From Rhodobacterales bacterium (GTDB lineage: Bacteria; Pseudomonadota; Alphaproteobacteria; Rhodobacterales; Rhodobacteraceae), in NCBI GenBank assembly GCA_017303485.1, contig JAFLCY010000028.1:1-38650 (forward strand): a DNA stretch of 38,650 nt. Reading direction: 5' to 3'. The position numbers and the translations under genes are program-made. Position 1 is the first letter of the stretch. Each line of letters opens with the position of its first letter. Positions 409-22,523 of this stretch are shown here, one piece after another. The notes below the pieces were generated by a model. That model was not told where the DNA came from and did no database searches. It saw nothing but the letters and a program-made list of their open reading frames with translations.

Positions 409-1113
409 TTACTCTGCCGGACCGGAGTCCTGCCGTCCAGCCAGTTCGCGCAGCCATTTGCGGTGGTGGCGGAAAGCCCAGCCTCCGGTCACCGTGCCCC
501 GGGTCATGGCGCGGATGGTGCCCCGGGTCCAGATCGCCGCATAGACGTGCAGGATGAACACCAGGATCGTGAGGAACGCCGCGAACGAATGGATCGCCAC
601 GGCAATCCGCCGCGCGGGGATCGAGGCAAGCACGGGAGCATAGTCCTGCCACAGCGGGATCTGCTGCTCCCAGATCATCAGGCCGGTAACGATCAGCACA
701 AGGATCAGCCCCGCCATCGACCAGAACACCAGTTTCTGCCCGGCGTTGTACTTGCCAAGTTCGGGCATGTCCTCTTCGTGCCCTGACAAAAGGTCGCCGG
801 CCTTCGACATCCAGACCACATCCTCGCGCCGGGGCAGGTTCAGCCGCCACATCTGCACGAAAAGGCCAAGGAAGCTGAAGAACATCACGATGCCGATCAC
901 CGGATGCAGCCAGCGGGCAGTCGGCCCGCCGCCGAACAGCGCGGTCAGGAAGTAGAGCCGCGGGTCGAAGAAGGCAAAGCCCGACAGCAGCAGAAGGATC
1001 ATGCAGAGCGCGGTCAGCCAGTGGTTCGCCCGGGTGAAGCCCCGGTAGCGGCTTACCGTCACCGGGTCGCGGGTCTCGATCTCGTCACCGGGGGCAGAGT
1101 AGATGCGCTTCAT
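409..1113 (-). CDS. fdoI: Formate dehydrogenase gamma subunit (cytochrome b556)
   Basis: This 234-residue integral membrane cytochrome b carries electrons from the beta subunit to the quinone pool. Four hydrophobic segments are visible at about residues 32-48, 70-88, 128-147 and 170-195. Candidate haem ligands are His31 (in RANHW), His70, His175 and His189, the FdnI/FdoI pattern. The N-terminal cytoplasmic part contains SRYRGFTRANHW, typical of the family. The chosen start MKRIYSAPGD is ATG at 1113-1111, one base after the beta-subunit stop; the frame stays open upstream, but that stretch is only the antisense-like tail of the beta gene. It ends with TAA at 411-409. The tight spacing implies translational coupling with the beta subunit. 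Confidence 0.93.
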   Translation of the reverse strand: MKRIYSAPGDEIETRDPVTVSRYRGFTRANHWLTALCMILLLLSGFAFFDPRLYFLTALFGGGPTARWLHPVIGIVMFFSFLGLFVQMWRLNLPRREDVVWMSKAGDLLSGHEEDMPELGKYNAGQKLVFWSMAGLILVLIVTGLMIWEQQIPLWQDYAPVLASIPARRIAVAIHSFAAFLTILVFILHVYAAIWTRGTIRAMTRGTVTGGWAFRHHRKWLRELAGRQDSGPAE

Positions 1114-1114
1114 T

Positions 1115-2095
1115 TCACGCCTCCTTCTGCGGATCGGTTTCGTCGACCAGTTCCGCGGCCTCCTGCTCCTCAAGCTCGGACACGGTGTTGGGCCGGCCGA
1201 AGATCCCATGCAGGACCGTTCCCACCGCCGCCAGCCCGATTGCCGCCAGCCCGACCGTCTTGGCCGGACCCTTCCAGCCCTCGACCACCGCAGAAATGCG
1301 GGGCTCGTCCGGCAGGCCGGAATAGAGTGACGGCTGGTCCGCATGATGCAGGACATACATCACATGGGTGCCACCCACGCCCTGCGGATCGTAAAGCCCG
1401 GCGTTTTCGTAGCCGCGCGACTTCAGGTCCTCGATCCGCTCATTGGCCAGGGCGATCTGGCTTTCCTTGGTGCCGAAGGTGATCGCCTTGGTCGGGCAGG
1501 CCTTGGCGCAGGCCGGGCCTTGCCCGACGGCCACGCGATCCGAGCAGAGCGTGCATTTCTTCGACACATGCGCGACCTTGGAAATCCGCGGAATGTCGAA
1601 GGGACAACCCGTCACGCAGTAGCCGCAGCCGATGCAGTTGTCGCTGATGAAATCGACGATGCCGTTGGAATACTGCACGATTGCGCCCGGCGCCGGGCAG
1701 GCCTTCAGGCAGCCCGGATCCTCGCAATGCATGCAGCCGTCCTTGCGGATCAGCCATTCCAGATCGCCGCTGTCCGGGTTCTCATATTCCGAGAACCGCA
1801 TCAGCGTGAACATGTCAGGCGTCAGGTCGTGGGGGTTCTCGTAGACCCCCACGTTCTCCTCGATATCCGGATGGGTGTCGTTCCACTCGATACAGGCCGA
1901 TTGGCAGGCCTTGCAGCCGATGCATTTCGACACGTCGATCAGCTTGGCCACCTTGTCCAGCTGCCGGTCCGGCGCGGGCAGGTTCGGCGTCGCCGAGGCC
2001 CTGACCACATCCGACGACAAGAGGTTCGAGGCCAGCGGCGACACCGGCGGGTTTGCTGCCGCCGTGGTCGGCTGAGGAGCGCTTTCGGTGGTCAT
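1115..2095 (-). CDS. fdoH: Formate dehydrogenase beta subunit, four [4Fe-4S] ferredoxin-type protein
   Basis: The 326-residue electron-transfer subunit links the catalytic subunit to cytochrome b. Four cysteine groups are visible: C58-x2-C61-x2-C64-x3-C68; C121-x2-C124 with C129 and C133; C154-x2-C157-x2-C160-x3-C164; and C181-x2-C184 with C196 and C200. This is the FdnH/FdoH arrangement for four clusters. A hydrophobic segment near residues 282-305 (Ala/Gly/Leu-rich) is the usual single membrane anchor, followed by an acidic tail. Residues 1-45, rich in Pro, Ala and Thr, have no recognisable domain. The ATG overlaps the fdhA stop by 4 bp (ATGA). No Tat signal is seen, as expected, because the beta subunit is exported in complex with the alpha subunit. 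Confidence 0.94.
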
Positions 2096-5000
2096 GCCAT
2101 GCCCTCCGCTGGCTCGATGTTGACAAGAAAGGCCTTGAACTCCGGCGTCTCGATATTGGCGTCACCGACGACGGGACCCAGCGAGTTCGGGCCGAAGCCC
2201 TTGCGCGCTGCGCCCTTGAAGCCCCAGTGGATCGGAATACCGATGATATGGACGGGCTTGCCGTCGCAGATCAGCGGGCGGACCCGCCTGGTGACCACCG
2301 CCTTGGCCCAGACCTGGCCGCGCTTGGACCAGACCCGAACCCAACCGCCCTTGGTGATGCCCTTCTCGGCCGCCAGTTCCTCGCTGATCTCGACGAAGAA
2401 CTCGGGCTGGGTCGTCGCATTCACCCGGTTGTGCTTGGTCCAGTAGTGGAAATGCTCGGTCAGCCGGTAAGAGGTGGCGACGAAGGGAAACTCCGCGCTG
2501 GTCGCCATCTCTGCCAGGTCGCCGGCGAAGACCCGCGCCACCGGATTGCCCCGCATTTCGGGGTTCAGCGGGTTGGCCACCGGGCTTTCGAACGGCTCCA
2601 TATGGGTCGGGAACGGCCCGTCGCGCATCAGCTTGCGGCTGAAGAAGCGGGCGGTCCCCTCCGGGTTCATGATGAAGGGCCCAACCTCGCGCGGTTTGGC
2701 GGTCACGGCGATGTCGGGCACGTCCGCGCCTGCCCATTTCTCGCCGTTCCATTCGATCAGCGTCCGGGTCGGATCCCACGGCTTGCCGTCAGGGTCGCAG
2801 GAGGCGCGGTTGTACAGCACCCTGCGGTTGGCCGGCCAGGAGAAGGACCAGTTCTGGAACACCCCCATGTCGGACGGGTCGCTATTGTCGCGGCGCGCCA
2901 TCATGTTTCCGGCCTCGGTCCAGCAACCGGAATAGATCCAGCAGGCGCCCATGGTCGAGCCATCGTCGCGCATCTGTCCGAAGCCGGACAATTGCTGGCC
3001 CGCCTCAAGCACCACTTTGGCCGGGTCCGCCGGATCGTACAGCGTTTCCAGCGCGCGGCCGTTCAGTTCGCGCGCCAGTTCAGCAGCGGTCGGTTCGCCG
3101 GGATCCTCATACTCCCAGTCCAGATTCAAAATCGGCTCGGGCGCCTTGCCGCCCTCGTCCTCGTAGAGTTTCTTCACCCGCAGATGAATCTGCGCCATGA
3201 TCCAGATATCGGTCCTGGCCTCGCCCGGAGGGGTAGGCCCGGGCCAGTGCCATTGCAGCCAGCGGCCCGAGTTCACCGTCGCGCCCTCGTCCTCGGCGAA
3301 ACAGGTCGTCGGCAGCTCCAAGACCTCGGTCTGGATCGAGGCCGTATCCACCTCGTTGTGGATGCCGTGGTTTTCCCAGAACGACGCCGTCTCGGTCTCC
3401 AGCGGGTCCATCACGACCATCAGCTTCAGCTTCGAGAAGGCCTCGGTCATCTTGGCCCGGTTGGGGAAGCTGAGCAGCGCGTTGAAGCCCTGGAAGAAGT
3501 AGGTGGTGACTTCGCCGTTCTTCATCATGTCGAACATGCGCATGGCGTCGTATTGCGCGATGTCCAGCTTGGGCAGCCAGTCATAGCCCCAGCCGTTCTC
3601 GACAGTCGCCTTGTCGCCCCACAGCGCCTTGAGGAAGCTGACCATGAACTTGTTGTAGTTCTGCCAGTAGCTCGTCTGGTTCGGGCGGAGGGGCTTGTTG
3701 CCCCGCGTCGACATGTAGGTGGCGAAGTCGGGCTCGGTCTCCCTTGGCATTGCCAGATAGCCGGGCAAGAGGTTCGACATCAGGCCCACGTCGGTCAGGC
3801 CCTGGATGTTGGAATGCCCGCGCAAGGCGTTCATGCCGCCCCCCGCGATCCCGATATTGCCCAGCAGCAGCTGCAGCATCGCCATGCCGCGGATGTTCTG
3901 GGCGCCCTTGGAATGCTGGGTCCAGCCCAGGGCATACATCGAGGTCATCGCCTTGTCGGGGGCAGAAGTCTCGCCGATCATCTCGCAGATCTTCAGATAG
4001 CGGTCCTTCGGCGTCCCGCACAGATTCTCAACGAATTCCGGCGTATAGACGTCGACATGCTGCTTCAGAAGCTGCCAGACGCTGCGGGGATGTTCCAGCG
4101 TCTCGTCCGTCAGGACAAAGCCGTCCTCGCCGATCTGGTACTCCCAGCTGGTCTGGTCATAGCTGCGCTTCTCGGCGTCGTAGCCGGTGAACATGCCATC
4201 GGACCAGCCGAAGTCCTCGCGCACCAGATAAGAGACGTTGGTGTAGTTGCGGACATAGTCCCACTGCACCTTGTCGTTCTCGATGCACCAGCGGATCACC
4301 CCCATCAGGAAGGCGATATCCGTGCCGGGACGGATCGGGGCGTAATAGTCCGACACCGATGCCGAGCGGTTGAACCTTGGGTCCACGACGATCAGCTTGG
4401 CGCCACGATGCTGCTTGGCCTCGGTCACCCATTTGAAGCCGCAGGGATGCGCCTCGGCAGCATTGCCGCCCATGATGACGACAAGGTCGGTATTCTTGAT
4501 ATCGGTCCAGGAGTTTGTCATCGCTCCACGGCCAAAGCTCGGGCCCAAACTGGACACCGTGGGGCCGTGTCAGACGCGCGCCTGGTTGTCGAATCCTACG
4601 ATACCCAGCGAGCGGACCACTTTCCACGTCGCCCAGGCGGTTTCGTTTGTCGTGGCCGAAGCGGCCAGAAAGCCGGTGGTGGTCAGCCGGTTGACCGTCA
4701 CGCCCTCGGCGTTCTTTTCGATCAGGTTGGCATCGCGGTCGTCCTTGACCGCGCGGGCGATCTTGTCCAGCGCCTCGTCCCAGCTGATCTCGGTGAACTT
4801 GTCGGCCCCCGGCGCGCGATAGCGCGGATAGGTCAGGCGCGTCTCGGCCTTGACGTAATCCTTCAGCGCCGCACCTTTCGGGCACAGCGTCCCGCGGTTC
4901 GTCGGATGGTCGGCGTCCCCCTCGATATGCAGGAGTTCTGCCGTCTCACCCGCTGCACGGTCGCCCTTGGAATACATGATGACGCCACAGGCGACAGAGC

Positions 5001-5169
5001 AATAGGTGCAGATGTTGCGTGTCTCGGTGGTGGTGGCCAGCTTGAAGTCGCGCACATGTGCGGCGACCGCGGCTTCCGCTTGCCCGAAGCCCATGGCCCC
5101 AAGCGTCGTAGCTGCCACCCCCGCACCCGCCAGCCCCAAAAAGCTGCGGCGCGAAAGGTCGATGTTCAT
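2092..5169 (-). CDS. fdoG: Formate dehydrogenase major subunit, selenocysteine-containing, Tat-exported
   Basis: This is one 1025-residue selenoprotein, seen as two open frames split by TGA at 4572-4570. Residues 1-199 run from ATG at 5169 (ribosome site GGGAGGG just upstream). They carry a twin-arginine signal (SRRSFLG, R7-R8), a hydrophobic stretch and the [4Fe-4S] ligands C54-x2-C57-x3-C61 and C96. Codon 200 is TGA and lies in NQARV-U-HGPTV, the same context as the selenocysteine of E. coli FdnG/FdoG. After it come the molybdopterin-binding regions ([18 protein letters not shown]) and a C-terminal domain ending ...NIEPAEGMA. The product oxidises formate to CO2 in the periplasm with a Mo/W-bis-MGD cofactor, the Sec and one Fe-S cluster. 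It needs SelA, SelB, SelD and tRNA-Sec, none of which is in this window. Automated annotation would probably call this two genes or a pseudogene. Confidence 0.95.
4527..4572 (-). promoter_or_regulatory. Bacterial SECIS element with the in-frame UGA (Sec) codon
   Basis: Read on the minus strand from UGA at 4572-4570. The lower stem CACGGCC (4569-4563) pairs perfectly with GGCCGTG (4533-4527). A CGG/CCG helix (4559-4557 with 4542-4540) follows, then an unpaired U at 4556, and a GUCC/GGGC helix (4555-4552 with 4546-4543) closing the loop AGUUU. Counting the U of UGA as 1, the bulged base is U17 and the loop holds G23 and U24. These are the three positions known to be needed for SelB recognition in E. 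coli SECIS hairpins. The fold was drawn by hand. Confidence 0.92.
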
Positions 5170-5318
5170 GGGTGACCCTCCCTTTACTGCCTTGATAAAT
5201 CTAGGTTGCTCGGTTCGAGCGATGGTCGGTCAGTTGAGGCTACCGTCATTTTTTCCATCCGTCGATAGGTTTGGCCAGCTTCACGGCACAAACAGCATGG
5301 ACAGACATATCAGAGGTG

Positions 5319-13092: not shown

Positions 13093-14466
13093 ATGACCGC
13101 AAGCACCAATGGCCAGGAGCCGACCGAATCCGTCGAATCGATCCTGCTTCGTGCCATCCAGGAGGGTGATGCCGAAAAGCTGAACGCCGTGCTTGACCCG
13201 CTGAGCTACAGCGAGGCGCTGCGCGAGCTACTGGCCCTGACACCGGACGACCGCGACCGGGTGCTGGAGCTTGTCCCGACTGAACTGGCGGCGCAGCTTA
13301 TCGGCGAGGCGCCAAATGAAATGGCGGTGGAGCTTGTCGAGCGCCTGTTGCCGGAACGTGCCGCCGAGATCCTTGAGGAACTCGACAGCGACATCAAGGC
13401 GGACGTCATCGGCGAACTCGATGAAGAGGATGCCGAGGCGATCCTGCTGGAAATGGACGAGGAGGACGCCGCCGATGTGCGTCGCCTGGTCGAATACGAG
13501 GATGGCACCGCCGGCGGCCTGATGATGGTGGAAGTCTTCCGCTTTCTGGAAAGCGAGACTGTCGGGAAAGTCCTGCGCGACCTTGCCTCGGGCGACGACG
13601 AATTTGAACGGTACCGCGGCCAGCACCCCTATATCACCGATGCGGAGGGGCAGCTTCTGGGCGTCGTGTCGCTGCGGGGCCTTCTGACCGCGAAACGAAG
13701 CGCGCTCCTCAGCTCGATCATGGTGAAACCCCTCGCGGTCGGGGTCGATACGCCGCTGGAAGAGCTAGAGGACATCTTCGACGAACATCCGTTCCTCGGC
13801 GTGCCCGTTGTCGATGACCTGGGCGATCTTGTGGGCGTCGTGTCGCGGTCCTCGGTTGCCGACGCCGTGCTGGAACGCAGCGAAACGGAAAGCCTGCGCC
13901 GCCAGGGCGTTGTCATCGAGGAACTTCGGTCGATGCCCGTCCTCTTGCGCTCGCGCCGCAGGCTGGCCTGGCTGACGGCCAACATCTTTCTGAACATCCT
14001 CGCCGCCAGCGTGATTTCCGCCTATGAGGCGACGCTTGCGGCGGTCATCGCGCTGGCGATCTTCCTGCCGATGGTGTCGGACATGAGCGGCTGTTCCGGC
14101 AACCAGGCGGTCGGGGTCAGTCTGCGGGAACTCAGCCTCGGCCTCGTGCGGCCGCGTGATGCCCTGCGTGTGCTGATGAAAGAGCTTTCGGTCGGCGTCA
14201 TCAATGGTGTTACCCTCGGTCTGCTGGTCGGCGCCGTCGCCTGGGTCTGGAAGGGCAATCCGGCCCTTGGTCTGGTGATCGGCGGGGCGCTGACCCTGAA
14301 CACGGTCCTTGCGGTGCTGATCGGCGGCGTGGTGCCGCTTCTGCTCAAGCGCTTCGGTCAGGACCCCGCGGCTGCCAGCGGCCCGCTGCTGACGACGATC
14401 ACCGACATGGCAGGCTTCTTCTTCGTCCTCAGCTTTGCGACGCTTCTGATGCCCTGGCTTTTGTAA
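13093..14466 (+). CDS. mgtE: Magnesium transporter MgtE
   Basis: A 457-residue Mg2+ channel. An acidic helical N domain (about residues 15-135; repeated ELDEEDAEAILLEMDEED) is followed by two CBS domains (about 150-212 and 214-275; the sequence SIMVKPLAVGVDTPLEE opens the second). A connecting helix at about 278-300 leads to five membrane helices to the C-terminus. The pore motif appears as MVSDMSGCSGNQAVG, a variant of the common GNAGTQ form seen in a subgroup of the family. The N and CBS domains sense cytoplasmic Mg2+ and close the pore. ATG 13093 follows a GGGGG-rich leader. It is monocistronic or coupled to the antiporter 121 bp downstream. Confidence 0.94.
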   Translation: MTASTNGQEPTESVESILLRAIQEGDAEKLNAVLDPLSYSEALRELLALTPDDRDRVLELVPTELAAQLIGEAPNEMAVELVERLLPERAAEILEELDSDIKADVIGELDEEDAEAILLEMDEEDAADVRRLVEYEDGTAGGLMMVEVFRFLESETVGKVLRDLASGDDEFERYRGQHPYITDAEGQLLGVVSLRGLLTAKRSALLSSIMVKPLAVGVDTPLEELEDIFDEHPFLGVPVVDDLGDLVGVVSRSSVADAVLERSETESLRRQGVVIEELRSMPVLLRSRRRLAWLTANIFLNILAASVISAYEATLAAVIALAIFLPMVSDMSGCSGNQAVGVSLRELSLGLVRPRDALRVLMKELSVGVINGVTLGLLVGAVAWVWKGNPALGLVIGGALTLNTVLAVLIGGVVPLLLKRFGQDPAAASGPLLTTITDMAGFFFVLSFATLLMPWLL

Positions 14467-14587: not shown

Positions 14588-16420
14588 ATGGCGTTGGAAG
14601 CAGTGGCTGGCGGCCTTGGAACGATCCCGGCGATTGCGCTGGTCGGCGCACTTGGCGTCGGGTCGCAATGGCTTGCCTGGCGGATGCAGATGCCGGCCAT
14701 CGTGCTGATGCTGGCGGCGGGCATCCTGATCGGTCCGGTTGCCGGCGTGCTGGAACCCCATGCCGTCTTCGGGGATTTCCTGTCGCCGCTCATCTCTGTC
14801 GCGGTGGCCGTCATCCTGTTCGAGGGCGGCCTGACCCTGAACCTCAAGCAGCTTGGCGATGCCCGCGCCGGCGTCCTGCGCCTGGTCCTGGTTGGCGCGC
14901 CTTTGGGATGGCTCCTGTCCAGTCTGGCATTGCGCTACGGTGCCGGGCTGTCCTGGGAAACTTCGGTGGTTTTCGGCGGCATCATGATCGTCACCGGGCC
15001 GACGGTGATCGCGCCCCTTCTGCGGCAGGCGCGCCTGCAGCGGCGACCGGCGGCCCTTCTGCAATGGGAGGCGATCGTAAATGATCCGATCGGCGCCATG
15101 GCGGCGGTCGTCGCCTTCCAGGCGGTCCTTGCCCTTCGGGGGGTCGACGAGGCGGGATTTGGCGGCATGGCCGCCGGCATCGTCTTTGCCGCGATCCTGG
15201 GCTACGGCATGGCCCGCGCTGTCGTCTGGATGTTCCGCAACGCGCTTGCGCCGGAATACATGAAGGTGCCGCTCCTCTTCACCGCGGTGCTACTGGCCTT
15301 TGCGGTCTCGGACATGGTGTTGCACGAAAGCGGTCTGCTGGCTGTCACCGTCATGGGGCTGGTGATCGCCAACGCCGATCTTCCCTCGTTCGAGGAGCTG
15401 CGCCGCTTCAAGGAACAGGCGACGGTCCTGCTTGTCTCGGGTCTTTTCATCCTCTTGTCCGCATCTCTCGACTTCGCCGTCTTCGGCCAGCTGACCTGGC
15501 GCGCGGTGCTGTTTCTGGTGATGGTCGTGCTGCTGGCCCGCCCGCTGACGGTCCTCATGTCACTGGTAGGGTCCAACATCCCCAGGAACGAACGCCTGCT
15601 GGTCGCCTTTACTGGCCCCCGCGGCGTGGTCCTTGTCGCGGTGGCGGGCCTCTTCGGCGAACGGCTTGTCGCGGCGGGCGTTGCGGATGGTGCGCTTGTC
15701 GGCCCCTTGGCCTTTGCGCTGGTCGCCGCGACCGTCATTCTGCACGGGTTCACCCTGGCCCCCGCCGCGCGCCTGCTGGGTCTGTCGGGCGGGGAATCCC
15801 CCGGTGTCCTCCTGGTTGGCGGATCGCGCTTTACCCTTGCCCTGGCCGAGGCGCTGCGCCGGGCCGACATCCCGGTCCTGGTCGCGGACCCGAACCGTGC
15901 CAATCTTCAAATGGCGCGGGCGCAGGGCATTCCGACCTACTACGGCGACATCTTGGGTGAGGCGGCCGAACACACGATTGAGTTGCTTGAATACCGAACT
16001 GTTCTCGCCGCGACTGATAATGATGCCTACAACACGTTGGTTGTTGCCAACTTGGCGCCAGAGTTTGGCAGGAACCACGTCTTTCGCCTGACCCGCTCCA
16101 AGGAAAGCCAGAGCAGCCATGCCCTTCCGCCCAGCCTCAGCGGGCGCTCGATCGGCGAGGGGCGGACATTCCGCAATCTGGAGGCCGCCATCGAAGCGGG
16201 CAAATCGATCCGGCTGACCCGTCTGACCGCCGAGTTTGACTTCGACCGGTGGAGAGCCATGGAACCCGATGCCGAGATCCTCGCCACGGTCCTTCCGAAC
16301 AAGGAGCTGATCTACGGGTCCGAGGTGCCGCGTGGCACGAAGACCCAGCTTGGACTCCTGCACCTTTCGGCGGGGCGCAACGGGGCGCAGGGCAGCCAGG
16401 TGGGCCAGCCACCGGACTGA
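14588..16420 (+). CDS. CPA1-type cation/proton antiporter with C-terminal TrkA-N (Rossmann) domain
   Basis: A 610-residue protein. Residues 1-395 hold about twelve hydrophobic helices with the CPA1 features: FEGGLTLN near 78-85, an extended TGPTVIAPLLR at 136-146, the ion-site pair N165-D166 (AIVNDPIGA) and TGPRGVVLV at 342-350. N-D at the transport site suggests electroneutral exchange, as known for CPA1 members such as NhaP. Residues about 405-505 form a nucleotide-binding TrkA-N domain (GVLLVGGSRF, then D434 after a beta strand in VLVADPNRANLQMA). A tail of about 100 residues follows. The ion (Na+, K+) cannot be told from sequence. ATG 14588 has an AAGGAG box 9-10 bp upstream. Confidence 0.9.
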   Translation: MALEAVAGGLGTIPAIALVGALGVGSQWLAWRMQMPAIVLMLAAGILIGPVAGVLEPHAVFGDFLSPLISVAVAVILFEGGLTLNLKQLGDARAGVLRLVLVGAPLGWLLSSLALRYGAGLSWETSVVFGGIMIVTGPTVIAPLLRQARLQRRPAALLQWEAIVNDPIGAMAAVVAFQAVLALRGVDEAGFGGMAAGIVFAAILGYGMARAVVWMFRNALAPEYMKVPLLFTAVLLAFAVSDMVLHESGLLAVTVMGLVIANADLPSFEELRRFKEQATVLLVSGLFILLSASLDFAVFGQLTWRAVLFLVMVVLLARPLTVLMSLVGSNIPRNERLLVAFTGPRGVVLVAVAGLFGERLVAAGVADGALVGPLAFALVAATVILHGFTLAPAARLLGLSGGESPGVLLVGGSRFTLALAEALRRADIPVLVADPNRANLQMARAQGIPTYYGDILGEAAEHTIELLEYRTVLAATDNDAYNTLVVANLAPEFGRNHVFRLTRSKESQSSHALPPSLSGRSIGEGRTFRNLEAAIEAGKSIRLTRLTAEFDFDRWRAMEPDAEILATVLPNKELIYGSEVPRGTKTQLGLLHLSAGRNGAQGSQVGQPPD

Positions 16421-17278: not shown

Positions 17279-18425
17279 GACCACCGACGACCTTGCCACC
17301 CGGCTGACCGCCATTGCCGAAGGGGCGGGCGGGTCGATCACACCACCGATCGTGCAGACATCTCTCTTTGTCTTCGACAGCTTTGACGATTTCCGCGCAC
17401 GGATGGACGGGTCAAGCGATGCGCCGATGTACAGCCGCGTCCAGAACCCGACCGTCGCCGCCTTCGAGGCGATGATGGCCGATGCCGAAGGCGGCGAGGC
17501 CGCCGTCGGCTTTGCCTCGGGAATGGGGGCGATCTCGGCGACGCTGATGGCCTTCTTGCGCCCGGGCGACCGTGTCGCCTGCGTGGAACACGTCTATCCC
17601 GACAGCTACCGCTTCATGGAGCGCATCCTGCGCCCCTTCGGGATCGAGACCACTTATCACCCGCTCAGCGCCTTCGAGGACGACCCCGACCTCTTGCAGG
17701 GCGTGAAAGTCGCCTATCTGGAAAGCCCCACCTCGGTTGTCTTCCAGCCGCTGAACCTGCCCAAGGTCGCCGCCCATGCAAAGCGACATTGCGTCGTGAC
17801 CATGATCGACAATTCCTGGGCCACCCCGGTGTTGCAGCGCCCGATCGAATCGGGCATCGACATCGTGATCCACTCGGCTTCGAAGTACATTTCCGGCCAT
17901 TCCGACACGGTGGCGGGCGTCGTCATCGGCTCAAGCGATCACATCGCCCGGCTGCGCGACCTGTCGCTGCCGTTGTTCGGCGCCAAGCTTGCCCCCTTCG
18001 AGGCCTGGCTCCTGATCCGGGGCCTGCGTACCCTGGTGCCGCGGATGCGCCAGCATCAGGCCACCGCCGACCTTTTTGCCGACCGTCTGGCCGCGCTGCC
18101 CTGCGTGCGCCGGGTGAACTCGCCCGCCGCCAACATGGTGCCGGGGTTGTCGGGCCGGTCCGGGCTGATGTCGGTCGAGTTCGACGAGACGGTCGACATC
18201 CCCCGCCTCGCCGATGCGCTGCGCTTCTTCCGTCTTGGCGTCAGCTGGGGTGGCTTCGAAAGCCTGATCCTGCCTGCGCAGGTGGGCCTGGCCCAGGCCG
18301 GCGAGTTCAACTCGATGCGCAAATTCGGGGTTCCCTCCACGCTCGTCCGGCTGAGCCTCGGGCTGGAGAACGCAGACGATCTTTGGGCCGACATGTCGTC
18401 GGCCCTGGCAACAAGCAGAATCTGA
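17268..18425 (+). CDS. MetC-like PLP-dependent C-S lyase (Cys/Met metabolism family)
   Basis: A 385-residue enzyme of the cystathionine gamma-synthase/beta-lyase family. Visible are Y55-S-R57-x2-N-P-T (phosphate binding from the neighbouring subunit), SGMGAIS at 84-90, D181 in IDNSWATP (PLP nitrogen partner), and K206 in SASKYISGHSD (the PLP lysine). Residues W184 and SWGGFESL near the C-terminus resemble cystathionine beta-lyase MetC more than gamma-synthase; Y110 takes the place of the YGGT region. It should cleave a beta C-S bond in a cysteine-type substrate. It is the only enzyme gene between a GntR regulator (11-bp overlap) and a sugar-type ABC importer (20-bp gap), so a biosynthetic MetC role is doubtful. 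ATG 17268 is used because the family homology starts there. Confidence 0.88.
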   Translation: MPDKTTDDLATRLTAIAEGAGGSITPPIVQTSLFVFDSFDDFRARMDGSSDAPMYSRVQNPTVAAFEAMMADAEGGEAAVGFASGMGAISATLMAFLRPGDRVACVEHVYPDSYRFMERILRPFGIETTYHPLSAFEDDPDLLQGVKVAYLESPTSVVFQPLNLPKVAAHAKRHCVVTMIDNSWATPVLQRPIESGIDIVIHSASKYISGHSDTVAGVVIGSSDHIARLRDLSLPLFGAKLAPFEAWLLIRGLRTLVPRMRQHQATADLFADRLAALPCVRRVNSPAANMVPGLSGRSGLMSVEFDETVDIPRLADALRFFRLGVSWGGFESLILPAQVGLAQAGEFNSMRKFGVPSTLVRLSLGLENADDLWADMSSALATSRI

Positions 18426-18445
18426 TAACCAAGGGAGAGAGAGCG

Positions 18446-19699
18446 ATGAAGAAACTTATTGCCGGTGCCGGGCTGTTGGCGCTTCTGTTGGGATCGACCG
18501 TTTCGGCCGAGACCCTGAAGCTTGTCGAGGTGATCACCAGCCCCGAACGCACCGAGGTGCTGAAGGGCATGGTCGACGGCTACAAGGCCGCCAACCCGGG
18601 CGTGGATGTGGAAATCATCTCGGTCCCCTGGGGCCAGGCCTTCGAGACCGTCGCCACCATGATCGCGGGTGGCGATACGCCGGACGTGATCGAGATGCCG
18701 GACACCTGGCAGGCGCTGTACGCCGACCAGCTGATGCCGCTGGACGACAAGATCGCCGGGTGGGAACACGGCGCGACGCTGACCCAGAAGACCATCGACA
18801 TGGGCAAGCTCGCCAACGGCAAGATCACGATGATCCCCTACGGCTTCTATTTGCGGGCGATGTTCTACAACAAGAAGCTCCTCGCCGAAGCGGGTGTCGC
18901 CGCGCCGCCGAAGACGATGGAGGAGTTCATGGCCGCCTCCGAGGCGGTGTCGAAGCTGGACGGCAAATACGGCTATTGCCTGCGCGGCGGCCCGGGCGGC
19001 ACGAACGGCTGGATCATGATGGCCGCGGTGATGAACGGATCGAACGAGTTCTTCACCGCAGACGGCAAGAGCCGCATCAACGAACCGGGCTCCGTGGCGG
19101 GCCTCCAGTTCCTGATGGACCTCTACCAGAAAGGCTACGCACCGAAGGACAGCGTGAACTGGGGCTTCAACGAGATCGTGGCCGGCTTCTACTCGGGCAC
19201 CTGCGCCTTCCTCGACCAGGACCCAGACGCCCTGATCGCCATCGCCGAACGGATGCCGGCCGAGGACTTCGCCGTGATCCCGATGCCCGTCGGGCCGTCG
19301 GGCAAGGCCTTCCCGACCATCGGCTTCGCGGGCTGGTCGGTGTTCAACTCGACCGAACACGCCGATGACGCCTGGAACCTCGTGGCCTACCTCTCCTCGC
19401 CCGAGTCGAATTCCACCTGGGCCAAGCGCGTGGGCGTGATCCCGATCCATCAGGGTGCCGACCAGGATCCCTTCTTCCAGACCGAGCAGTTCAAGGGCTG
19501 GTTCGAGGAACTGAACAGCCCGGATTACATCCCGACCATCATGCCGACCTATCTGGAGCAGTGGGGCTACTTCACCTCGACCATCCTGAAGGACACCGCG
19601 CAAGAGGCGCTTCTGGGCCAGAAGTCGGCGCAGGAGCTGGCTGACGAATGGGCGGTCTTCCTGACGGACGAATACACTGCATGGAAAGCCAAGCAGTGA
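18446..19699 (+). CDS. MalE-type (family 1) extracellular solute-binding protein
   Basis: A 417-residue periplasmic binding protein. The Sec signal MKKLIAGAGLLALLLGSTVSA is cleaved before ETLKL. Family 1 features include AANPGVDVEIISVPW near residues 49-63, IAGGDTPDVIEMPDTW at about 74-89, MIPYGFYLRAMFYNKKLLAEAG at about 129-150, and the C-lobe hinge GFAGWSVFNSTEHADDAWNLVAYL. Such proteins usually bind oligosaccharides, glycosides or polyols. A ribosome site GGGAGAGAG sits immediately upstream. It overlaps the first permease gene. Unlike the other two binding-protein genes in the window, no hairpin separates it from the permease. Confidence 0.92.
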   Translation: MKKLIAGAGLLALLLGSTVSAETLKLVEVITSPERTEVLKGMVDGYKAANPGVDVEIISVPWGQAFETVATMIAGGDTPDVIEMPDTWQALYADQLMPLDDKIAGWEHGATLTQKTIDMGKLANGKITMIPYGFYLRAMFYNKKLLAEAGVAAPPKTMEEFMAASEAVSKLDGKYGYCLRGGPGGTNGWIMMAAVMNGSNEFFTADGKSRINEPGSVAGLQFLMDLYQKGYAPKDSVNWGFNEIVAGFYSGTCAFLDQDPDALIAIAERMPAEDFAVIPMPVGPSGKAFPTIGFAGWSVFNSTEHADDAWNLVAYLSSPESNSTWAKRVGVIPIHQGADQDPFFQTEQFKGWFEELNSPDYIPTIMPTYLEQWGYFTSTILKDTAQEALLGQKSAQELADEWAVFLTDEYTAWKAKQ

Positions 19700-20622
19700 C
19701 GCAAGGTCAAAAGGCGCCCGGGACACCCCGGGCGCACCAGCGCTTTGTCTGGTCGCACCTGATCGAACCCTACCTCTACCTCACACCCGCGCTGGTGCTG
19801 ATCGCGCCGGTCATGCTCATCCCGCTGGTGGTGGGGGTGAGCTATTCGTTCCAGTCGATCATGCTTCTGAAGCCGGGGCAGGCGGAATGGGTCGCGCTGG
19901 ACAACTATGTGGCCCTCTGGTCCGACAGCAAGTTCTGGATCTCGCTGGAAAACACGCTGGTCTGGACCTTCGGCTCGCTGTTCTTCCAGTTCACGCTGGG
20001 CCTTGGCCTGGCGCTTCTGCTCAACACCAGTTTCCCGCTGAAGCGGCTGTTCCAGGCCATCGTCTTCCTGCCCTGGGCAGTGCCCACCTTCCTGACCGCG
20101 TTGACCTGGGCCTGGCTCTTCAACCCGGTGATCGGCCCCCTGCCGCACTGGCTGGCCGCCATCGGCATCCTGCCCGAGCCTTTCAATATCCTGGGCGACC
20201 CCGACCTTGCCATCTGGGGTCCGATCGCCGCGAACATCTGGTTCGGCGTGCCCTTCTTCGCCATCACGCTTCTGGCCGCACTGCAATCCATCCCGTCCGA
20301 GCTTTATGAAGCCGCCGAGATCGACGGTGCATCCGCCTTTCAGAGCTTTACCAAGATCACACTGCCCTTCCTTGCGCCGATGATCGCCATCACGGTCATG
20401 CTACGCACGATCTGGATCGCCAATTTCGCCGACCTGATCTTCATCATGACCGGAGGCGGACCGGCCAATTCCACGCAGATCCTGTCCACCTACATCTTCA
20501 CCACCGCGTTCAAGAAGCTGGACTTCGGCTACGCCTCGACGCTTGCGGTGACGCTCTTGTTCCTGCTCTTCGTCTATGCCGTGGTGCTTCTGGCGCTGCG
20601 CCGCCGCTTCGTGAGGCTGTGA
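19681..20622 (+). CDS. Sugar ABC transporter permease (MalF/UgpA type)
   Basis: A 313-residue permease with six membrane helices (about residues 25-50, 88-110, 122-145, 175-197, 225-245, 280-303). The binding-protein-dependent transport signature EAAEIDGASAFQSFTKITLPFLAPM is the EAA loop that contacts the ATPase. The start is uncertain. ATG 19681 overlaps the binding-protein gene by 19 bp; GTG 19696 would give a 4-bp overlap and has a GGAAAG ribosome site seven bases before it. It forms a heterodimeric channel with the next gene. Confidence 0.92.
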   Translation: MESQAVTQGQKAPGTPRAHQRFVWSHLIEPYLYLTPALVLIAPVMLIPLVVGVSYSFQSIMLLKPGQAEWVALDNYVALWSDSKFWISLENTLVWTFGSLFFQFTLGLGLALLLNTSFPLKRLFQAIVFLPWAVPTFLTALTWAWLFNPVIGPLPHWLAAIGILPEPFNILGDPDLAIWGPIAANIWFGVPFFAITLLAALQSIPSELYEAAEIDGASAFQSFTKITLPFLAPMIAITVMLRTIWIANFADLIFIMTGGGPANSTQILSTYIFTTAFKKLDFGYASTLAVTLLFLLFVYAVVLLALRRRFVRL

Positions 20623-21464
20623 TGACCGTCGCTGCACGCCGCAATCCGCTCCTCACCTTCGGCAAATACGCCGCGATCCTGTTCTACCTGAGCTTTGCGC
20701 TCTTTCCGCTTTACTGGCTGCTGAAGATCGCGATCACGCCCGACCAGCTGATCTTCACCGAGGGCACGGCGCTCTGGCCCTCGACCGCAACGCTCGACAA
20801 CTTTTCCAAGGTGATCTGGCAGACCGACTTCCTGCGGTTCTTCCGCAACAGCGTGATCGTCTCGCTCGCCTCGGCTGCCATCACCACCGTCATCGCCGCT
20901 GCCGCGGGCTACGCCTTCTCGCGCTTCCGCTTTCGCGGGCAGAAACTGGTCATCGCGCTGATGCTGCTGACGCAGATGTTCCCGCTTCTGATGATCATCG
21001 CACCGATCTACAAGATCGTCGCCGCTCTGGGTCTCCTGAACTCGCTTTCCAGCCTGATCCTGGTCTACACCGCCTTCAACATCCCCTTCGCAACTTTCCT
21101 GATGCAAAGCTTCTTCGACGGCATCCCGAAGGATCTTGAGGATGCGGCGATGATGGACGGCTGCACACGGTTCCAGGCGTTGCGCAAGGTGATCCTGCCG
21201 CTGACCCTGCCGGGCCTTGGCGCAACGCTCGGCTTCATCTTCACCGCCGCCTGGTCCGAGGTGCTGTTCGCGCTCATGCTCATTCGGTCCGAGGGCAGCA
21301 TGACCTTCCCGGTCGGGATGCTGACCTTTGTGTCCAAGTTTTCCGTCGACTGGGGGCAGATGATGGCGGCTGGCGTGCTGGCGCTCATTCCCTCCTGTCT
21401 CTTCTTCATCTTCATCCAGCGATATCTGGTCCAGGGCCTGACCTCTGGCGCGGTGAAAGGCTGA
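20622..21464 (+). CDS. Sugar ABC transporter permease (MalG/UgpE type)
   Basis: A 280-residue permease, second half of the channel. Six helices are seen, and the EAA-type loop reads DLEDAAMMDGCTRFQALRKVILPLTLPGL. The N-terminus (KYAAILFYLSFALFPLYWLLKIAITP) is typical of carbohydrate ABC permeases of the MalG class. ATG 20622 overlaps the previous stop by one base (TGATG), indicating coupled translation; a GTG one codon earlier is also possible. Confidence 0.93.
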   Translation: MTVAARRNPLLTFGKYAAILFYLSFALFPLYWLLKIAITPDQLIFTEGTALWPSTATLDNFSKVIWQTDFLRFFRNSVIVSLASAAITTVIAAAAGYAFSRFRFRGQKLVIALMLLTQMFPLLMIIAPIYKIVAALGLLNSLSSLILVYTAFNIPFATFLMQSFFDGIPKDLEDAAMMDGCTRFQALRKVILPLTLPGLGATLGFIFTAAWSEVLFALMLIRSEGSMTFPVGMLTFVSKFSVDWGQMMAAGVLALIPSCLFFIFIQRYLVQGLTSGAVKG

Positions 21465-21467
21465 TCC

Positions 21468-22523
21468 ATGGCTCGTCTCGACCTTATCGACATCGAAAAG
21501 CGCTTCGGCTCCGTCGACGTGCTGAGGGATGTGAACCTCTCCATCGAGGATGGCGAGTTCATCGTCCTCGTCGGCCCGTCCGGCTGCGGCAAGTCCACGC
21601 TTCTGCGCATGATCGCCGGGCTTGAGGACATCTCGTCCGGTGAGTTCCTGATCGACGGCCAGCGCATGAACGAGGTGCCGCCCCGCGACCGGGACATTGC
21701 CATGGTGTTCCAGTCCTATGCGCTTTACCCGCATATGGACGTCGCGCGGAACATGGGTTTCTCGATGGAAATCCGTGGCGCCGAGGCTTCCGCCCGCACC
21801 TCGCGCGTGGCCGAGGCCGCCCGGACCCTCGGACTGGACAAGCTGACCCAGCGCCTGCCCCGCGCTCTGTCCGGCGGTCAGCGCCAGCGTGTCGCCATGG
21901 GCCGGGCCATCGTGCGCGAGCCGCGGGCCTTTCTGTTCGACGAGCCGCTTTCGAACCTTGACGCCGCGCTACGGGTCGAGATGAGGCTGGAGATCGCCCG
22001 GCTGCACCAGCGGCTCAAGGCCACGATGGTCTATGTCACCCATGATCAGGTCGAGGCGCTGACCCTGGCCGACCGCATCGTCGTCCTGAACGGCGGTGTC
22101 GTGCAGCAGGTCGGTTCCCCGCTTGAACTTTACCAGACCCCGGCCAACCGCTTCGTCGCCCAGTTCATCGGATCTCCCACCATGAACATCCTTGGCGTCG
22201 AGCGATCAGAAAACGGCGTGCGCCTGGCCAACGGGGCCGAAATCGCGCTTCCCGGATTGACCGGTCCCGTCGCCGAGCTGGGCATCCGGCCCGAACATCT
22301 CGACATCGCCGATCCGTCCACGGCCCCGCTGACCGGGACGGCCGATGTGGTCGAACATCTGGGGTCGGACACCAACGTCTATGTCCTTGTCGATGGCGTT
22401 GGACCGCTGATGGTGCGCCAGCATGGCCATGTCGCCCTGCGCGCGGGCGACCGTCTGGGCCTGACCGTCCAGCCCGGCCAGACCCACGCCTTCGCATCAG
22501 ACGGCCACGCCCTTCGAGCGTGA
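21468..22523 (+). CDS. Sugar ABC transporter ATPase (MalK/UgpC/MsmX type)
   Basis: The 351-residue ATPase energises the MalFG-type channel. Motifs are all intact: Walker A GPSGCGKST near residues 37-45, Q-loop MVFQSYALYPHM, signature LSGGQRQR near 137-144, Walker B FLFDEPLSNLDA and switch YVTHDQVEA. The C-terminal third (from about 235) is the OB/TOBE regulatory domain; FIGSPTMNIL is the usual junction. ATG 21468 lies 3 bp after the permease stop. It closes the operon that began with the GntR gene. Confidence 0.94.
   Translation: MARLDLIDIEKRFGSVDVLRDVNLSIEDGEFIVLVGPSGCGKSTLLRMIAGLEDISSGEFLIDGQRMNEVPPRDRDIAMVFQSYALYPHMDVARNMGFSMEIRGAEASARTSRVAEAARTLGLDKLTQRLPRALSGGQRQRVAMGRAIVREPRAFLFDEPLSNLDAALRVEMRLEIARLHQRLKATMVYVTHDQVEALTLADRIVVLNGGVVQQVGSPLELYQTPANRFVAQFIGSPTMNILGVERSENGVRLANGAEIALPGLTGPVAELGIRPEHLDIADPSTAPLTGTADVVEHLGSDTNVYVLVDGVGPLMVRQHGHVALRAGDRLGLTVQPGQTHAFASDGHALRA

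What the first reader, a model, noticed from the sequence alone, without database searches (positions are those of the whole stretch)
2092..5169. Formate dehydrogenase large subunit is a selenoprotein read through an in-frame TGA
Two open frames (5169-4570 and from 4569 down to 2092) join exactly at TGA 4572-4570, in the context NQARV-U-HGPTV. The signal peptide and Fe-S ligands are before it, the molybdopterin domain after it. Known FdnG/FdoG proteins have Sec at the same place (codon 196 in E. coli, codon 200 here). Without recoding the gene would be called broken or split.
Basis: partly seen in the sequence, partly recalled or inferred. Interest (0 to 1): 0.72.

Follow-up and report, generated by a model that had tools for sequence, protein, structure and literature searches.

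The report
Ordinary selenium-containing formate dehydrogenase gene
The apparent stop in the middle of this formate dehydrogenase gene is a normal, conserved selenocysteine codon with its RNA signal, as already known from related bacteria; the RNA signal also seems to decide which amino acids may stand next to the active site.

Summary
On the minus strand, 5169-2092 is one FdnG/FdoG gene with an in-frame TGA at codon 200 (4572-4570), aligned with position 196 (Sec) of E. coli FdnG. The genome has selB, selC and selD. selA was not found. The likely cause is assembly: the window's contig begins inside fdhE, the selB contig is a chimeric join at selB, and two relatives, one of the same genus, carry fdhE-selA-selB-selC in that order. 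Such clusters are in print (PMC1794560, PMC8124441). So: a new member of a known kind. One further pattern: residues 206 and 209 are only Ser/Gly or Ala/Ala in 162 of 162 Sec-type proteins, matching a U.G or G-C pair in the SECIS stem, but mixed in 22 of 57 Cys-type proteins. The hairpin appears to fix active-site neighbours. Interest is low for the gene, moderate for the pattern.

The parts
2092..5169 (-). fdnG/fdoG: membrane-bound formate dehydrogenase alpha subunit, 1025 residues with Sec200
4570..4572 (-). TGA codon 200, read as selenocysteine
   Evidence: 82 of 82 relatives TGA; aligned to position 196 (X) of 1kqf_A
4517..4575 (-). SECIS element (Rfam RF01989 SECIS_3)
   Evidence: 74.7 bits over gathering 63; the only SECIS_3 match in the own genome at E up to 0.1
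4540..4559 (-). apical SECIS hairpin (+14 to +33 from the T of TGA): bulged U17 (4556), loop G23 U24 (4550-4549), pair 19-29 (4554/4544) linking codons 206 and 209
   Evidence: fold; pair counts; G23 and U24 in 162 of 162 distinct Sec-type proteins
1115..2095 (-). fdnH: iron-sulphur beta subunit with C-terminal membrane anchor
   Evidence: TIGR01582 470.6 bits (cut-off 334.7); PF09163; overlaps the end of fdnG by 4 bases
409..1113 (-). fdnI: cytochrome b gamma subunit
   Evidence: TIGR01583 173 bits (cut-off 115.85); PF01292
1..342 (-). fdhE: formate dehydrogenase accessory protein, first 114 codons only (ATG at 342 read), cut by the contig end
   Evidence: TIGR01562 model positions 4-113 of 305; window begins at base 1 of contig C176

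Best explanation
fdnG here is an ordinary selenoprotein gene. Shown: the TGA at codon 200 is conserved, is followed by a SECIS hairpin of a known family, and the genome carries the Sec tRNA, SelB and SelD. Inferred: SelB bound to the hairpin (bulged U17, loop GU) delivers Sec-tRNA(Sec) to the UGA; selenocysteine then ligates Mo or W in a periplasmic FdnGHI-type formate:quinone oxidoreductase, exported by Tat and matured with FdhE. Inferred: selA lies between fdhE and selB in the real genome but is lost in this draft assembly.
For: Family and subunit assignment. SECIS_3 match at the TGA. TGA in 82 of 82 relatives; in the first comparison of 143 rows, window included, 138 have TGA and 5 a Cys codon. 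dN/dS after the TGA 0.109, 0.151, 0.193 and 0.225 against 0.089, 0.126, 0.154 and 0.188 before it, for four relatives: slightly higher after it but far below 1, so the downstream part is no dead remnant. selB, selC, selD present; the SelD domain has GCGAK (that this is the catalytic motif is recalled). Hairpin: 7 of 8 inner pairs formed in 162 of 162 distinct Sec-type rows, three of them (18-30, 19-29, 21-27) with changes on both sides. Gene order fdnG-H-I-fdhE-selA-selB-selC, the protein genes other than fdnG each scored over their family cut-off, fdnG by alignment and selC by ARAGORN, in Pseudogemmobacter humi L055 and in the same-genus genome G004. Same cluster described in print (PMC1794560; PMC8124441; passages seen).
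Against: selA is not in the assembly: the only hit is a DgaE-type paralogue on C1 (37 bits on TIGR00474, cut-off 268; 297 bits on the DgaE-type model TIGR01437, itself under its 385 cut-off). The genome is a 257-contig draft with 6.22% contamination, and the selB-selC contig C47 is chimeric at its start, so linkage of selB/selC to fdnG in this very genome, or even that C47 belongs to the same organism, is not directly shown. No protein-level evidence.
Confidence: 0.97

Rival explanations
1. The TGA is a true stop and fdnG is a pseudogene or a split gene.
For: Mechanically the gene is two ORFs; selA was not found in the assembly; in the same-genus genome G011 the locus is a decayed relic, so loss does occur in this genus.
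Against: TGA in 82 of 82 relatives, and no other in-frame stop before the end in the window gene; purifying selection after the TGA; SECIS_3 over gathering score; selB, selC and selD present.
Confidence: 0.02
2. selA is truly absent and the DgaE-type paralogue on C1, or Ser/Cys mis-insertion, serves instead.
For: No SelA over cut-off in the own genome.
Against: The C1 protein scores 297 bits on the DgaE-type model and 37 on selA. The missing stretch coincides with a contig start inside fdhE and a chimeric contig start at selB, which is where L055 and L197 carry selA; in L116 too selA follows fdhE.
Confidence: 0.02
3. TGA is decoded by another residue (for example Trp by an altered code).
For: None specific.
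Against: fdnG itself ends in TGA, where the fdnH frame takes over; homologues without TGA at the site have Cys codons there (5 of 5; 57 of 57 distinct); a tRNA-SeC with anticodon tca is present.
Confidence: 0.005

Closest known systems
Formate dehydrogenase-N FdnG of E. coli (PDB 1kqf/1kqg)
   Same: Match over residues 3-1021, 1412 bits; Sec at the equivalent position (X196); same FdnH and FdnI partners
   Different: Here fdnG lies in one run with fdhE and, in relatives, selA-selB-selC; hairpin type Ser206/Gly209, whereas the E. coli chain reads HGPTVASLAP, the Ala/Ala type
fdoGHI-selABC clusters of Alphaproteobacteria (PMC8124441, PMC1794560; passages seen)
   Same: Same genes and order in relatives L055 and L197; a single SECIS_3 in the own genome
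   Different: In this assembly the cluster is broken over two contigs and selA is missing
   Same: Same family TIGR01553 (L152 and L167: 1550 and 1488 bits)
   Different: TGC/TGT at the site; SECIS loop lost (G23 in 1 of 57); residue 207 Ala in 56 of 57; residues 206/209 mixed in 22 of 57
Sec-containing formate dehydrogenases of PDB 9qm0, 8cm4, 6sdr (Desulfovibrio FdhAB; organism and subunit make-up recalled)
   Same: Named as selenocysteine-containing formate dehydrogenase alpha; about 850 bits
   Different: More distant than FdnG; soluble two-subunit enzyme (recalled)

Membership tests
FdnG/FdoG formate dehydrogenase alpha subunit (TIGR01553) | Full-length match over the curated cut-off | tested here: met
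   1409.1 bits, cut-off 814.2, model 2-1008 of 1009
FdnG/FdoG formate dehydrogenase alpha subunit (TIGR01553) | Twin-arginine signal, 4Fe-4S cysteines, molybdopterin domains | tested here: met
   SRRSFLG and C54/C57/C61/C96 read in the sequence; PF04879, PF00384, PF01568
FdnG/FdoG formate dehydrogenase alpha subunit (TIGR01553) | FdnH and FdnI partners next to it | tested here: met
   TIGR01582 and TIGR01583 over cut-off
Bacterial selenoprotein | In-frame TGA conserved at a position that is Cys in other homologues | tested here: met
   82 of 82 relatives TGA; Cys codons in the rest of the rows compared
Bacterial selenoprotein | SECIS hairpin directly 3' of the TGA, with G in the first loop positions | tested here: met
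   RF01989 74.7 bits; loop G23 U24 in 162 of 162 distinct Sec-type proteins; consensus model in passages of PMC13188914
Bacterial Sec-decoding trait | selB, selC, selD in the genome | tested here: met
   the selB-selC contig is chimeric at one end
Bacterial Sec-decoding trait | selA in the genome | tested here: inconclusive
   Not in the assembly; expected place falls in an assembly break
Bacterial selenoprotein | Selenocysteine in the purified protein | not testable with these tools
   needs mass spectrometry

The most novel reading that the evidence does not exclude
The SECIS hairpin inside fdnG writes part of the active-site neighbourhood. Residues 206 and 209 switch together (Ser/Gly or Ala/Ala) because codon 206 base 1 and codon 209 base 2 form a stem pair, U.G or G-C, and residue 207 is held to Ser or Gly because its codon must end in the loop GU. 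Both mixed combinations (Ser/Ala and Ala/Gly) break the RNA pair. They occur in Cys-type enzymes, where the RNA constraint is gone, but in none of the 162 Sec-type proteins examined. Sec enzymes would thus keep residues chosen by the decoding machinery and not by catalysis, and would drop them once Sec is replaced by Cys.
Probability: 0.75. Interest if true: 0.45.

Novelty: new member of a known kind. Interest (0 to 1): 0.25.

Why it matters
For annotation, it shows that a gene which an automatic caller would split or call broken is intact and recoded, and that an apparently missing selA can be a contig artefact. The wider point, if it holds, is that the recoding signal's RNA structure constrains identifiable residues beside the active site, with Cys-type homologues as a natural released control. 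That makes a testable case of an RNA element forcing paired amino-acid changes, relevant to engineering selenoenzymes, where SECIS and protein sequence must be satisfied together.

Tried and rejected
Pseudogene, altered genetic code and true absence of selA were considered and rejected as above. selA was sought by family model and by the P. humi SelA protein; both reached only a DgaE-type paralogue on C1. Two further tRNA-Sec model hits over cut-off, on C200 and C223, are tRNA-Ser genes. Other SECIS_3 elements in the own genome: none at E up to 0.1; other SECIS families were not searched genome-wide. A purely protein-level explanation of the 206/209 linkage is not excluded, but two further pairs that join third codon positions (18-30 and 21-27) also covary, paired in 162 of 162 Sec rows and in only 29 and 21 of 57 Cys rows, which protein selection hardly explains. 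U17 is no evidence: it is also kept in 56 of 57 Cys rows, being the second base of the Val205 codon. Exchange of the short hairpin block between lineages by recombination, in place of repeated double mutation, was not tested. The searches for the residue linkage and for compensatory change listed 1, 3 and 3 papers, none about it by title and abstract start; those papers were not opened, so it may be in print, above all in subscription journals. The first Fisher test was given a wrong cell; one search replaces it.
Full report
What was claimed.

Check of the observation. Translating 5169-2092(-) with TGA as U gives one open protein with U at residue 200; without recoding there are two ORFs, 5169-4570 and 4557-2092. 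The whole protein matches NCBIfam formate dehydrogenase-N alpha (TIGR01553) at 1409 bits, cut-off 814, and E. coli FdnG (1kqf_A) over residues 3-1021, residue 200 lying on X at chain position 196. FdnH and FdnI follow at 2095-1115 and 1113-409, both over curated cut-offs; fdhE begins at 342 and is cut by the end of the contig.

Recoding signal. At gathering threshold Rfam finds one RNA family in the window, SECIS_3, on the minus strand at 4575-4517, 74.7 bits against 63. It is the only SECIS_3 match in the assembly. The folded strand shows a lower stem, a bulged U at +17 from the T of TGA, and an apical stem with loop GUU at +23 to +25. That SelB reads U17, G23 and U24 is recalled from the E. 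coli work, not tested.

Conservation. All 82 have TGA at the aligned codon. Being the nearest relatives, they do not sample distant Cys types. Against four relatives dN/dS before/after the TGA is 0.089/0.109 (L116), 0.126/0.151 (L055), 0.154/0.193 (L026) and 0.188/0.225 (L058), so the part after the TGA is under similar constraint.

Machinery. In the assembly to which the window belongs (257 contigs, 99.84% complete, 6.22% contamination), selC is at C47:3049-3140 (75.2 bits; ARAGORN tRNA-SeC, anticodon tca), selB at C47:1159-3012 (388.5 bits) and selD at C239:3938-4846 (281.4 bits), the last as the C-terminal part of a longer, oxidoreductase-like frame. selA is not found over cut-off by model or by a SelA protein from Pseudogemmobacter humi; the one weak hit is a DgaE-type paralogue.

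Why selA is probably an assembly loss. The window begins at base 1 of contig C176, and only positions 4-113 of the 305-position FdhE model are found in the assembly, so the rest of fdhE is missing too. Contig C47 starts with about 1.1 kb of lower-G+C DNA (0.53-0.62 in 300-base steps) with a PAS/sensor-kinase-like frame, which runs into selB without the normal selB start. In P. humi (L055) the order is fdnG-fdnH-fdnI-fdhE-selA-selB-selC, and in the same-genus genome G004 (L197) it is the same, SelA scoring 565 bits against 268. In the nearest relative, L116, selA also follows fdhE (567 bits), but its tRNA-SeC lies upstream of fdnG on the other strand. tRNA-SeC was found in 36 of the 51 loci given to ARAGORN (49 of the 80 loci plus the short L026 and L027). 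The stretch missing here is thus the one that holds the end of fdhE and selA. That C47 comes from the same organism is inferred from the 75% identity of its SelB to that of G004 and from the gene order.

Distribution. In a search of the own genome and 60 relatives, a full-length FdnG of this kind was found in G000 and G004 among 32 genomes of the genus, and in G050 outside it. G011 of the same genus keeps fragments: fdnG residues 1-93 and pieces of 385-671, followed by a 64-residue piece near the end of SelB, beside an intact selD. This relic of a lost cluster shows that loss looks different from the window.

Comparison with what is known. PMC1794560 states that the Sec-decoding Alphaproteobacteria, Betaproteobacteria and Pseudomonadales of its survey have selA-selB-selC operons with a neighbouring fdhA that is their only selenoprotein (passages seen). 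[quoted passage not shown] The nearest named relatives of the window gene are Gemmobacter, Pseudogemmobacter and Paracoccus, from which I infer Rhodobacterales. The finding is a new member of a known kind.

A further pattern. In the first comparison of 143 rows (window, the 82 loci above, 60 further loci), 138 have TGA and 5 have TGC/TGT. In the 138 the inner hairpin pairs 15-32, 16-31, 18-30, 19-29, 20-28, 21-27 and 22-26 are formed in every row; pair 14-33 is formed in only 58 of 138; in the outer stem pairs 5-45, 8-42 and 9-41 are formed in 89, 137 and 102 of 138, the other four in all. On 63 distinct sequences 93.1% of inner cells pair, against a mean of 78.9% and a maximum of 83.1% in 1000 shuffles, and 25-55% when one side is slid by 1 to 3 bases. 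Pairs 18-30 and 21-27 join third codon positions, so their covariation is largely silent in protein. Pair 19-29 joins codon 206 base 1 to codon 209 base 2, and is U.G in 53 rows (Ser206, Gly209) and G-C in 85 (Ala206, Ala209), with no other combination.

Released control. To get more Cys-type proteins I searched 369 genomes of the class of G281, 300 of the order of G314 and 295 of the family of G433, took the loci offered (12, 30 and 29 new ones), and fetched 20 further rows, all chosen because they had no stop inside. Cys rows are thus enriched on purpose; many listed TGA rows and at least 6 listed rows without a stop were not fetched, and the list was itself cut. After removal of identical proteins 234 rows became 219: 162 TGA and 57 Cys. 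Residues 206/209 are Ala/Ala in 109 and Ser/Gly in 53 of the 162 Sec rows, mixed in none. In the 57 Cys rows they are Ala/Ala 33, Ser/Ala 16, Ala/Gly 3, Ser/Gly 2 and one each of Gln/Ala, Ser/Ser and Ala/Ser, so 22 mixed. The 19-29 pair is formed in 162 of 162 Sec rows and 36 of 57 Cys rows; 15-32, 18-30 and 21-27 in 162 of 162 each, and in 16, 29 and 21 of 57; but 20-28 and 22-26 stay formed in 54 and 57 of 57 Cys rows, 16-31 in 49 of 57, and 14-33 is formed in only 63 of 162 Sec rows. Residue 207 is Ser (AGT, 141) or Gly (GGT, 21) in Sec rows and Ala in 56 of 57 Cys rows. Fisher's test of mixed against linked gives 4e-15 but ignores kinship. On a FastTree tree built without the site region, Sec rows need 11 switches of the pair; of 7 independent contrasts on well-supported branches the two residues go together in 7 (sign test p 0.016). 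Cys rows need 15 changes at 206; of 14 contrasts residue 209 goes the same way in 2, the other way in 1 and does not change in 11. Two Cys rows (L275, L290) are distant (40% and 46% identity), and two long branches (L168, L196) are placed with less certainty.

Reading of the pattern. The simplest account is that the hairpin must stay paired while UGA is decoded, so both residues change together, and that the bar falls away once Cys replaces Sec. Not excluded: exchange of the short block between lineages, or a protein-level link that exists only beside Sec. The U/C state changes 3 times on the tree, so the Cys control rests on few independent losses. The literature searches made listed no report of this link; they do not show that none exists.

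Verdict. Observation confirmed, interpretation supported; an ordinary, intact selenoprotein formate dehydrogenase. The linked residues are the only part that may be new.

Noticed in passing
G000 contig C47 (L021) 1-1160: Chimeric contig: about 1.1 kb of lower-G+C DNA with a PAS/sensor-kinase-like frame is joined to selB just inside its start. It would mislead anyone testing for selA by synteny.
   Followed up: partly
L198 (G011, same genus) 4738-4051, and selD at 2898-3941: Relic of a lost Sec cluster: fdnG fragments and a 64-residue piece from near the end of SelB lie in a row beside an intact selD.
   Followed up: partly
window 2053-5175, plus strand: A 1040-aa ORF runs antisense across all of fdnG; frames of 988-1107 aa lie antisense to fdnG in L055, L116 and L197 too. 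Probably a shadow of G+C-rich codon usage.
   Followed up: no
G000 contig C239 (L023) 2834-4948: The selD match of this genome is the C-terminal part of a longer oxidoreductase-like frame, with GCGAK kept; 11 residues of the frame read X (masked or unknown bases).
   Followed up: no
L116 8586-8681, minus strand: In the nearest relative (Gemmobacter sp. MAG, 91% identity) tRNA-SeC lies upstream of fdnG on the opposite strand instead of after selB.
   Followed up: no
window 5968-38005: Neighbours: phospholipase D-like protein (7542-5968), MgtE (13093-14466), cation/proton antiporter (14588-16420), ABC transporter parts (17789-22523), ABC ATPase (27805-26267), LacI-type regulator inside the frame 38005-35468. 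Not all ORFs were searched; nothing tied to selenium seen in those that were.
   Followed up: no
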